The notes below the pieces were generated by a model. The model had not been told where the DNA came from and made no database searches. It saw nothing but the letters and a program-made list of their open reading frames with translations. From Bacillus rhizoplanae (GTDB lineage Bacteria; Bacillota; Bacilli; Bacillales; Bacillaceae_G), in NCBI RefSeq assembly GCF_917563915.1, contig NZ_CAKJTI010000006.1, positions 62,001 through 126,000 on the forward strand: a stretch of 64,000 nucleotides of DNA, read 5' to 3'. Numbering within the stretch: the first letter of the stretch is position 1; each line of letters opens with the position of its first letter. Made by a program: the position numbers and the translations under genes. Shown here piece by piece: positions 2,330 through 27,537 of this stretch.

Positions 2330-2348
2330 TCACGAAAAATTCATGTAA

Positions 2349-2396
2349 AAAAACACCTCCGTATTGAAATTGAGACAAGCGGAGGTGTTTTTTCTT
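2349..2396. terminator. bidirectional terminator
   Basis: The stem AAACACCTCCG / CGGAGGTGTTT has A-tracts upstream and T-tracts downstream, so it can serve both the small + strand gene and the - strand DedA gene. Confidence 0.85.
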
Positions 2397-25331: not shown

Positions 25332-26224
25332 TATATACGTTTAAATCGTCCAACCACTTCTACTGTTTCTGTAATGTTAATAAAAGCATGGCTATCAACG
25401 TGACGGATCAGACGTTTAATTTCTCCTAATTCATAGCGCGTAACAATTGTGTAAATCACTTTTTTCTTATGATCTGTATATCCACCGACAGCATCAACCA
25501 TTGTTACACCGCGAATCCCGTTTTGTAGTAATGCTTTTTTAATGGCACTTCCTTTTTCTGTAACGGTCATCACTGTTAATTTAATGTGCTTTGTATGAAT
25601 AGAATCGATGACTTTACTTACAACAAATCGGCTGATAAGTGTGTAAAGTGTAATATCCCATCCAAAAATAAAACCACCGACTGCAAGTAGAATAAGGTTA
25701 AAGGCAAAAATAATGGATCCAATAGAAATATCTTTATGTTTTGCTACAATTAACCCAATAATATCGAATCCACCTGTTGAAGAGGCAAACCGGAAAATGA
25801 TTCCCGTCGCAGCTCCGCATAATACACCACCAAAAACAGAAGACAACAAAACATCCTCAGAAATTTGATGAACTGGAATGATATTCATAGCAAGAGTCGA
25901 TACAGCAAGAAAGTATGCTGTTAAAAAAGTTGTTTTCTTTCCTAAGTAAAAATAGCTAAGAAAAAGTAGTGGAATGTTTAATAAAAAGATGAGTGCACCA
26001 ATACTGTAGTGCATTAAGTAACCGATAATCATCCCAACGCCAGCAAAGCCGCCACTAATCATGTGGTGTGGAATAAAAAACATATTCATTGAAAATGCAT
26101 AGAGAATTGAAGCAACTGAAATAACAACAAGTTGAATGATGAATTCTAAATGCAATGTTTTTGCAGCTCGGAATGATAAAAAGGCGGTATCGGGAACGTA
26201 ATCGGCGTCTCCTAGTTGGCCCAT
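25331..26224 (-). CDS. YitT family membrane protein
   Basis: This 297-residue protein has five to six membrane helices with the family pattern FFIPHHMISGGFAGVGMI near 52 and GGFDIIGLIVAKHK near 165, then a soluble C-terminal DUF2179 domain of about 80 residues (GVTMVDAVGGYTDHKKKVIYTIV). B. subtilis has several paralogs (YitT, YpjC, YqfU and others) of unknown transport role. ATG 26224 follows GGAGATG at rather long spacing. It is monocistronic. Confidence 0.85.
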   Translation of the reverse strand: MGQLGDADYVPDTAFLSFRAAKTLHLEFIIQLVVISVASILYAFSMNMFFIPHHMISGGFAGVGMIIGYLMHYSIGALIFLLNIPLLFLSYFYLGKKTTFLTAYFLAVSTLAMNIIPVHQISEDVLLSSVFGGVLCGAATGIIFRFASSTGGFDIIGLIVAKHKDISIGSIIFAFNLILLAVGGFIFGWDITLYTLISRFVVSKVIDSIHTKHIKLTVMTVTEKGSAIKKALLQNGIRGVTMVDAVGGYTDHKKKVIYTIVTRYELGEIKRLIRHVDSHAFINITETVEVVGRFKRI

Positions 26225-26379
26225 AGTCTGTTTTCATCTCCATATTCGTTTTTTATTACAAGAAGAGAATAATGCTTTTTTCAAGCACTGGCAATAGTTT
26301 TATTATTATACAAAAATTTTATAAAATTTTTACAATTTAAGTGTATGGATAAAAACATGAATATGTAAAATATAAGGAA

Positions 26380-26407
26380 TTTACATGTTGAAGTAGTATG
26401 ATATAAT
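26380..26407 (+). promoter_or_regulatory. sigma-A type promoter of the small ORF-yidC unit
   Basis: TTTACA (26380-26385) and TATAAT (26402-26407) are separated by 16 nt. The predicted transcript starts about 15 nt before the small ORF. Confidence 0.6.
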
Positions 26408-26429
26408 CCTGTCATAAGGATGTGAAGAG

Positions 26430-26723
26430 ATGGAATTCCTGTTGCAAGATGCAATGTTATGTATATCTGTTGTAACAACGGCACTTTGTTTATTAGAAGT
26501 CTTATTTCTCACTAATGTTTCACGTTTTGTACGTCAGCAAACATATAGGGGCAGACAGAAAGCTTTCGCAGTCGTTGAAACATGTGAGGAACATATAGGG
26601 AATAGCTTACTTTTCTCTATCTTTTATAAACATGGAATGGCCCACTCAGTTCGCAGGCAAGAAGCAAGCGGAGAGAGTGACGATGTAGGTCCGTATATAA
26701 CCAATGTTTCGCTAACGAATTAA
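26430..26723 (+). CDS. small membrane ORF upstream of yidC, MifM-like candidate
   Basis: This 97-residue protein has one hydrophobic segment near the N-terminus (about residues 9-28, LCISVVTTALCLLEVLFL) and a hydrophilic C-terminal half ending EASGESDDVGPYITNVSLTN. Its stop codon is 22 bp before yidC. The 5' arm of a hairpin (26701-26710) codes for its last residues, and the 3' arm overlaps the yidC ribosome site. In B. subtilis the 95-residue MifM has the same position, size and N-terminal membrane segment; it stalls the ribosome when membrane insertion is poor and so opens the yidC2 ribosome site. I see no close sequence match to MifM; the analogy rests on layout. Confidence 0.65.
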   Translation: MEFLLQDAMLCISVVTTALCLLEVLFLTNVSRFVRQQTYRGRQKAFAVVETCEEHIGNSLLFSIFYKHGMAHSVRRQEASGESDDVGPYITNVSLTN

Positions 26724-26733
26724 GAAACATTGG
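26701..26733 (+). promoter_or_regulatory. hairpin that covers part of the yidC ribosome site
   Basis: CCAATGTTTC (26701-26710) pairs perfectly with GAAACATTGG (26724-26733). The last two G residues of the 3' arm are the first two of the GGAGG ribosome site (26732-26736) for yidC at 26746. A ribosome held at the last codons of the upstream ORF would unwind the 5' arm. Confidence 0.7.
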
Positions 26734-26745
26734 AGGAATATATAT

Positions 26746-27537
26746 ATGTTTAAATCATACCGAGCTTGGCTCGTAAGTTTATCTTTATTACTTGTTGTTG
26801 TTTTATCTGGTTGTAGTAATGCGAATGCAAATGCAGGACCAGTTGATGCGAATAGTCCAGGATTTTGGAATCACTTTATTGTATATCCAATTTCTGTTAT
26901 GCTGCAGTTTGTGGCGCACCATTTGCCGAATCATAGCTTTGGGATTGCCATTATCATTATTACGATTGTAGTTCGTACGATATTACTGCCGCTGACGATT
27001 ACGCAATATCGCAGCCAATTAAAAACGAAAAAAATGCAGCCAAAGCTTCAGAAATTGAAGGAAAAGTATGGCGATACGACGAAGAATCCGGAAAAACAAA
27101 AGCAATATCAACAAGAAATGATGACTTTAATGAGAGAGGGCGGTGTAAACCCGCTGATGGGTTGTTTACCATTGCTGCTGCAAATGCCGGTCTTCTCAGG
27201 ATTGTACTATGCAATTAGTCACACGGAAGAGATTCGTTCATCTTCTTTCTTATGGGTAAATTTAGGACATGCAGATCCTTATCACATTTTACCTGTCCTT
27301 GCTGCTATGTCAACATTCCTGCAAATGAAAGTATTTCAGTCTAATATGACAGGAGAGCAAAGCCAAGTATTAAAAGTCCAGCAGTTTATAATGCCGGCAA
27401 TGATTTTATTTATGGGATCTGCTGCACCATCAGGACTTGTCTTGTACTGGATTACAAGTAACTTATTTACTGTGATTCAAACTATAGTATTGAGGAAAGT
27501 TATGGATCGTGAAGATGTACAAGTGCAAAGCGCATAA
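26746..27537 (+). CDS. yidC: membrane protein insertase YidC (OxaA)
   Basis: This 263-residue lipoprotein inserts proteins into the membrane, alone or with SecYEG. It has a lipobox (LVVVLSGC, Cys23), five membrane segments, and the charged coiled segment RSQLKTKKMQPKLQKLKEKYG after the first core helix. The hydrophilic groove Arg is in IVVRTILLPLTITQYR. It lacks the large periplasmic domain, as expected in Gram-positive bacteria. GGAGG is 10 nt before ATG 26746 but partly paired in a hairpin. Gram-positive species often have two paralogs (SpoIIIJ and YidC2); the regulated one is usually YidC2, and the layout here suggests this is that one. Confidence 0.93.
   Translation: MFKSYRAWLVSLSLLLVVVLSGCSNANANAGPVDANSPGFWNHFIVYPISVMLQFVAHHLPNHSFGIAIIIITIVVRTILLPLTITQYRSQLKTKKMQPKLQKLKEKYGDTTKNPEKQKQYQQEMMTLMREGGVNPLMGCLPLLLQMPVFSGLYYAISHTEEIRSSSFLWVNLGHADPYHILPVLAAMSTFLQMKVFQSNMTGEQSQVLKVQQFIMPAMILFMGSAAPSGLVLYWITSNLFTVIQTIVLRKVMDREDVQVQSA

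What the first reader, a model, noticed from the sequence alone, without database searches (positions are those of the whole stretch)
26380..26760. Possible MifM-like ribosome-stalling switch in front of yidC
A 97-residue ORF with one N-terminal membrane segment ends 22 bp before yidC. Its last codons form the 5' arm of a perfect 10-bp hairpin (CCAATGTTTC / GAAACATTGG) whose other arm includes two bases of the yidC GGAGG. A promoter (TTTACA-16-TATAAT) precedes the unit. In B. subtilis, MifM monitors membrane insertion, stalls, and frees the yidC2 ribosome site in this way. The layout is shared but the C-terminal sequence (GESDDVGPYITNVSLTN) does not look like MifM, so it may be an independent or diverged arrest peptide.
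Basis: partly seen in the sequence, partly recalled or inferred. Interest (0 to 1): 0.8.

Follow-up and report, generated by a model that had tools for sequence, protein, structure and literature searches.

The report
Diverged MifM-like switch before yidC
A short membrane-anchored peptide encoded just before a membrane-insertase gene very probably stalls its own ribosome when insertion fails and so switches the insertase on; it looks like a diverged relative of a known Bacillus sensor, with a different stalling sequence.

Summary
A 97-codon ORF (26430-26723) with one N-terminal membrane segment precedes a yidC paralogue (26746). A perfect 10-bp hairpin covers the first two bases of the yidC GGAGG (3 of 20000 shuffles did as well). 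The one clear relative found, 36% identical, lies before yidC on a Priestia aryabhattai plasmid. The block HSVxRQEAxGExDDxGPY is kept as protein (pN 0.16, pS 0.80 in its core). The tail after it is not, but its hairpin is, with 3 of 10 pairs changed on both sides and none broken. Paenibacillus, Listeria and Cytobacillus yidC genes have uORFs of like layout. The published MifM-class criteria that could be tested are met; the B. subtilis MifM core motif is not. Best reading: a YidC-monitoring arrest peptide working like MifM with a diverged arrest sequence. Stalling is inferred, not shown; modelled release of the ribosome site is only partial. The class is known; this subtype's arrest site is not.

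The parts
26380..26407 (+). promoter TTTACA-16-TATAAT with TG before the -10
   Evidence: TATGATATAAT also in the Priestia leader
26413..26429 (+). leader and ribosome site of the uORF, beginning CATAAGGATGTGAA, a 14-nt stretch identical in Priestia
26430..26723 (+). uORF, 97 aa, candidate YidC-monitoring arrest peptide
26454..26510 (+). predicted membrane segment, residues 9-27; N-out/C-in inferred from the positive charges after it
26607..26696 (+). conserved C-terminal block, residues 60-89, ending HSVRRQEASGESDDVGPY (residues 72-89); candidate arrest sequence
26673..26684 (+). acidic patch ESDD, residues 82-85
26701..26710 (+). 5' arm of the hairpin, inside codons 91-94
26724..26733 (+). 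3' arm of the hairpin, pairs off the first two G of the yidC GGAGG
26732..26736 (+). yidC Shine-Dalgarno GGAGG
26746..27537 (+). yidC paralogue, 263 aa (PF02096, E 4.6e-53); below the SpoIIIJ equivalog cut-off (246.4 against 377 bits)

Best explanation
[quoted passage not shown] subtilis MifM, with a diverged arrest sequence. The uORF and yidC are transcribed together from the promoter at 26380 (inferred). In the free mRNA the hairpin masks part of the yidC ribosome site (pairing seen in the sequence; repression inferred). The nascent chain exposes an N-terminal N-out/C-in membrane segment, a type often seen in YidC substrates (inferred). While insertion is slow, the C-terminal block HSVRRQEASGESDDVGPY holds the ribosome near codons 85-89 (inferred). 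A ribosome paused at G87 or later covers the base of the 5' arm and frees the two stem-bound G of the SD, so the second insertase is made. When YidC activity suffices, insertion pulls the chain, the arrest ends, translation terminates and the hairpin re-forms. I expect the pause at about G87/P88: with D85 in the P site the leading edge (+16) would be at about 26698, just before the arm at 26701.
For: (1) Layout confirmed. (2) Homologue before yidC in Priestia: tblastn E 2e-7, 34 of 95 columns identical. (3) Selection splits by place. Residues 72-87: 12 of 16 identical, pN 0.16, pS 0.80. Residues 60-89: 18 of 30, pN 0.25, pS 0.85. Membrane part 1-31: 11 of 31, pN 0.36, pS 0.67. Spacer 32-59: 5 of 23 aligned, pN 0.55. 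Tail 90-97: 0 of 5 aligned. (4) Hairpin at the same place with 3 of 10 pairs changed on both sides and 0 broken; Priestia stem 14, reached by 0 of 20000 shuffles. Of 37 ORFs of 80-120 codons in the window, 4 have a membrane segment, 9 an acidic patch, and 1 both: this one. (6) Of 17 yidC loci examined, the 6 with such a uORF have stronger structure before yidC than the 11 without (Mann-Whitney p 0.001 for z, 0.003 for helix length). (7) The two stem-bound G go from 0.001 and 0.009 unpaired in free mRNA to 0.48 and 0.29 with G87 in the P site.
Against: No stalling, repression or insertion dependence was measured. Only one clear homologue was found; the window's own species group could not be compared. 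The MifM motif is not met. PDB sequence searches with the window ORF, the Priestia ORF, and profiles of two and four uORFs did not retrieve MifM. Only 2 of the 5 SD bases are in the stem. Averaged over all five, SD unpaired probability is 0.37 free, 0.60 at G87 and 0.75 at P88, but already 0.59 with the ribosome at E82, before it reaches the stem. The -14..-6 region of the window is 0.48 unpaired, inside the control range of 0.02-0.66. In the P. polymyxa relative the model predicts no release: 0.20 free, 0.02-0.03 at residues 78-84. Controls without such a uORF can be as structured: Enterococcus L016 has a 14-pair helix, Staphylococcus L015 z -2.40, Lysinibacillus L009 0.02 unpaired. The GPY codons are identical in DNA and may be held partly by pairing with the yidC start region.
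Confidence: 0.83

Rival explanations
1. Plain translational coupling: ribosomes translating the uORF melt the hairpin and reinitiate at yidC; no regulated arrest.
For: The stop codon ends 8 nt before the SD and 22 nt before the ATG, so a terminating ribosome would open the stem; no arrest was measured.
Against: Coupling needs no conserved peptide, yet the C-terminal block has pN 0.16-0.25 against pS 0.80-0.85 while spacer and tail drift. The membrane segment and its distance to the acidic patch (54 in both) are kept.
Confidence: 0.1
2. The uORF makes a small functional membrane protein, for instance a YidC partner, and the conserved C-terminus is its working part.
For: A conserved, membrane-anchored small protein next to yidC would also be under purifying selection.
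Against: It does not explain a hairpin kept by both-side changes inside the last codons. No Pfam or NCBIfam family matches the window ORF up to E 1 or the other five uORFs up to E 0.1. Peptide conservation ends about where a paused ribosome would need it to end.
Confidence: 0.05
3. The hairpin is a transcription attenuator or an accident.
For: Modest folding z of -1.84 in the window.
Against: No T-run follows the stem, the terminator scan does not list it, and Priestia keeps it with other letters.
Confidence: 0.02

Closest known systems
MifM of Bacillus subtilis (mifM-yidC2), and the MifM class of 572 Firmicutes sequences in PMC10987492
   Same: uORF of a secondary yidC, about 95 aa, N-terminal membrane segment, acidic patch at residues 82-85 (MifM 86-89), similar spacer, hairpin over the yidC ribosome site.
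   Different: Core arrest residues RIxxWI and MN are absent; the patch is ESDD, not DEED; the block HSVxRQEAxGExDDxGPY is shared with Priestia only, among the sequences seen. Whether this ORF is among the 572 could not be read (no look-ups in supplements).
SecM of Escherichia coli
   Same: A Gly-Pro pair at the conserved end, recalling the end of the SecM arrest sequence RAGP; a stem-loop over the downstream ribosome site.
   Different: Target gene (secA), signal sequence, and no RAGP; a resemblance of two residues only.
CliM (Clostridia, first named uC_KYxIW) and ApcA (actinobacteria), other arrest peptides before yidC
   Same: uORF of yidC with membrane segment and C-terminal arrest sequence (PMC13183943 and PMC7897499, passages seen).
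   Different: KYxIW and RAPG are not present here.

Membership tests
MifM in the strict sense (B. subtilis motif) | arrest motif RIxxWIxxxxxMNxxxxDEED (PMC7897499, passage) | tested here: not met
   best ungapped placement 3 of 10 residues, reached by 281 of 1000 shuffles
MifM in the strict sense (B. subtilis motif) | sequence homology to MifM | tested here: inconclusive
   only MifM 68-94 was at hand. Direct: 746 of 2000 shuffles as good. Window to Paenibacillus 3 and 1 of 2000; Paenibacillus to MifM 4 and 4 of 2000; 21 pairs tested, uncorrected. PDB searches negative
MifM class as defined in PMC10987492 | yidC uORF with N-terminal localization signal and soluble part of at least 30 aa | tested here: met
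   hydropathy used, not the paper's signal predictor
MifM class as defined in PMC10987492 | minimum 5-residue local charge below -0.3 between residues 70 and 100 | tested here: met
   -0.6 window, -0.8 Priestia, by simple K/R minus D/E counting
MifM class as defined in PMC10987492 | falls into the MMseqs2 cluster that holds MifM | not testable with these tools
Monitoring substrates (SecM, MifM, VemP kind) | C-terminal sequence conserved among homologues | tested here: met
   one clear homologue only
Monitoring substrates (SecM, MifM, VemP kind) | stem-loop sequestering the downstream SD | tested here: met
   two of five SD bases in the window
Monitoring substrates (SecM, MifM, VemP kind) | translation arrest near the C-terminus, released by membrane insertion | not testable with these tools
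   needs toeprinting and reporters
SpoIIIJ (primary YidC) | NCBIfam NF002803 cut-off 377 bits | tested here: not met
   window yidC 246.4 bits, Priestia plasmid yidC 230.4, Priestia megaterium spoIIIJ 474.3; so a paralogue, as the MifM target is

The most novel reading that the evidence does not exclude
This ORF and its Priestia relative stall by their own mechanism: an upstream HSVxRQEA contact plus an acidic patch, with the pause one to three codons past it on a Gly-Pro pair, combining a MifM-like patch with a SecM-like end. Arrest peptides before yidC in Bacillales would then keep membrane segment, acidic patch and hairpin while the tunnel-contacting part is rewritten lineage by lineage.
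Probability: 0.25. Interest if true: 0.55.

Novelty: new variant of a known kind. Interest (0 to 1): 0.36.

Why it matters
A 2026 paper counts three arrest peptides identified before yidC: MifM, ApcA and CliM (PMC13183943, passage). A relative that keeps layout, spacer and acidic patch but not the MifM tunnel contacts gives a natural experiment on which residues stall the Bacillus ribosome. It also suggests that the secondary insertase of this group is under insertion feedback, and that the sensor travels with a plasmid-borne yidC in Priestia.

Tried and rejected
Genome-contig scan with the uORF: one match, L001, on the strand opposite a long reading frame of a Mycolicibacterium contig (an aminotransferase by eye); rejected as chance. 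No other genome of that collection was reached, so absence elsewhere is not shown. Viral-contig scans with the uORF, with A1 and with a YidC alignment: nothing. phages tblastn: one chance hit at E 8. Rfam on 26220-26900: no match up to E 1. PHROGs: none up to E 0.1. Transcription terminator idea: no T-run. The idea that all six uORFs form one alignable family was not upheld: Listeria and Cytobacillus do not align with the window beyond chance (1418 and 976 of 2000 shuffles); only the layout is shared. A3 and A5 (built with a shortened window range by mistake) were not used for counts; A6 was not searched. Literature: searches listed 14, 1 and 15 of 44 papers, none of which I found to describe this ORF, 0 of 14 papers hold 'Bacillus cereus'. 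Searches returned mostly unrelated papers (20 of 4,765 and 15 of 1,437 listed, none with MifM) and say little. Only the open PMC library was searched. Papers: PMC10987492 outline, passages and sections 6, 12, 19; PMC7897499, PMC6037786, PMC4423224, PMC13183943 and PMC8624511 passages only. The RIxxWI motif and the acidic-patch rule come from those passages.

Full report
What is there. With the SD fixed and the 100 nt before it shuffled, 3 of 20000 shuffles gave as long a stem through both G. Folding energy alone is less striking: z -1.84, 27 of 500 shuffles as stable.

The insertase. The protein is a YidC (PF02096, E 4.6e-53) but scores 246.4 bits against the SpoIIIJ equivalog cut-off of 377. 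A Priestia megaterium spoIIIJ next to rnpA scores 474.3. So this is a secondary YidC, the kind of gene that MifM controls. Its neighbours are a YitT-family gene upstream on the other strand and an amino-acid permease downstream.

A relative with the same unit. tblastn of the ORF in 72,556 plasmid records found one match at E up to 1: a 93-aa hypothetical protein before yidC on a Priestia aryabhattai plasmid (E 2e-7). Identity is 34 of 95 columns; the two YidC share 116 of 245. The leader is conserved too: TATGATATAAT and CATAAGGATGTGAA are in both.

Two kinds of selection. In codons 72-87, 12 of 16 residues are identical with pN 0.16 and pS 0.80; in codons 60-89, 18 of 30 with pN 0.25 and pS 0.85. 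The membrane part (1-31) has 11 of 31 and pN 0.36, the spacer (32-59) 5 of 23 aligned and pN 0.55, the tail (90-97) 0 of 5 aligned. Synonymous sites are near saturation, so the ratios are rough. The tail, where the peptide drifts, is where the hairpin's 5' arm lies. There the pairs are kept: CCAATGTTTC against CCAGTATTTT, 3 of 10 pairs changed on both sides, 7 unchanged, 0 broken. The Priestia stem is longer, 14 pairs, reached by 0 of 20000 shuffles. Peptide selection up to Y89 and RNA selection after it is what an arrest-controlled switch needs. One caution: the GPY codons are identical in DNA in both and may also be held by pairing with the yidC start region.

Wider look. I fetched 16 plasmid-collection records with yidC, chosen by hand from searches with 74 and 68 matching records (40 and 60 rows shown), plus the window: 17 loci. 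Six carry a uORF with N-terminal membrane segment and acidic patch: window, Priestia, Paenibacillus polymyxa (L007), P. cellulosilyticus (L006, unannotated), Listeria yidC2 (L011) and Cytobacillus (L012). In the other 11 I saw none directly before yidC. For 5 of these I read ORF lists (L008, L009, L014, L015, L016). For 6 I went by annotation only (L005, L010, L013, L017, L018, L019). L015 does have a 138-aa ORF with a hydrophobic N-terminus, but it ends 335 nt before yidC, so I counted it as a control. Distances from membrane segment to acidic patch were 54, 54, 49, 48, 46 and 52; the published MifM median, to the arrest site, is 54 (PMC10987492 section 12). Structure before yidC is stronger in the six than in the eleven: p 0.001 for z, 0.003 for helix length. 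The loci are few, hand-picked and not independent (L009 and L013 are near relatives; L005/L011 and L006/L008 come from the same strains). I had seen several of the hairpins by eye before this test. L016 (14-pair helix), L015 (z -2.40) and L009 (0.02 unpaired) are structured controls, and the window's own -14..-6 region, 0.48 unpaired, lies inside the control range.

Is it MifM? The MifM motif RIxxWIxxxxxMNxxxxDEED (PMC7897499, passage) is not met: 3 of 10 residues at best, matched by 281 of 1000 shuffles. Direct comparison with MifM 68-94, the only part at hand, is at chance (746 of 2000). The window resembles the Paenibacillus uORFs (3 and 1 of 2000 shuffles as good), and these resemble MifM (4 and 4 of 2000); Priestia to Paenibacillus is weaker (233 and 31 of 2000). 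With 21 uncorrected pairs this chain is suggestive only. PDB sequence searches did not find MifM. The published MifM class is wider: a cluster of yidC uORFs in Firmicutes kept if they have a localization signal, a soluble part and local charge below -0.3 at residues 70-100, 572 sequences in all (PMC10987492 section 19). The window ORF meets these tests (-0.6), but cluster membership could not be checked.

How it would work. In B. subtilis, a stalled ribosome on MifM keeps a stem-loop over the yidC2 ribosome site open, and YidC-dependent insertion of MifM ends the arrest (PMC13183943 and PMC4423224, passages). The geometry here fits a pause at G87-Y89: with G87 in the P site the leading edge (+16) is at 26704 and the two pairs that hold the SD are gone; with D85 it is at 26698, before the stem. 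The two stem-bound G rise from 0.001 and 0.009 unpaired to 0.48 and 0.29 at G87. The mean over all five SD bases is a weaker guide: 0.37 free, 0.60 at G87, 0.75 at P88, but already 0.59 at E82. Among the five relatives the mean rises in four (Priestia unevenly) and not in P. polymyxa, where refolding keeps the SD paired.

Verdict. The layout and both conservation signals support a MifM-like YidC monitor with a diverged arrest sequence. Arrest, repression and dependence on insertion are inferred. The kind of system is known; I found no description of this subtype's arrest block in the open papers that my searches reached.

Noticed in passing
L004:3133-6076: The Priestia yidC with its uORF sits on a 163-kb plasmid, behind a group II intron reverse transcriptase gene and, further upstream, an IS21 pair: an insertase and its sensor carried as plasmid cargo.
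   Followed up: partly
L006:1130-1480: An unannotated uORF before yidC in Paenibacillus cellulosilyticus that overlaps the yidC start by 58 nt; the P. polymyxa one (L007) overlaps by 35 nt, so in both the uORF stop lies inside yidC.
   Followed up: partly
L011:1180-1461: Listeria yidC2 has a 93-aa uORF ending ITDDEDSFSFSNV, whose C-terminal half resembles MifM 68-94 (6 of 2000 shuffles as good), between an acylphosphatase gene and yidC2. Enterococcus (L016) and Limosilactobacillus (L017) have acylphosphatase-yidC with no such uORF seen.
   Followed up: partly
L012:1168-2244: Cytobacillus spongiae linear plasmid: yidC annotated as two fragments (1483-1776, 1957-2244) behind a uORF whose acidic codons also form part of a long hairpin over the yidC ribosome site.
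   Followed up: no
L016:800-935: Enterococcus gallinarum yidC2 has a 14-pair helix over its ribosome site although no uORF with a membrane segment was found there.
   Followed up: no
L015:234-650: Staphylococcus caprae small plasmid: a 138-aa hypothetical protein with a hydrophobic N-terminus lies 335 nt before a plasmid-borne yidC.
   Followed up: no
window 2348-2393: A 14-bp inverted repeat with A-run and T-run ends, found on both strands; looks like a bidirectional terminator.
   Followed up: no
L013: A plasmid deposited as Stenotrophomonas rhizophila carries a yidC region with the same kinds of neighbour genes as Lysinibacillus L009; possibly a mislabelled record.
   Followed up: no
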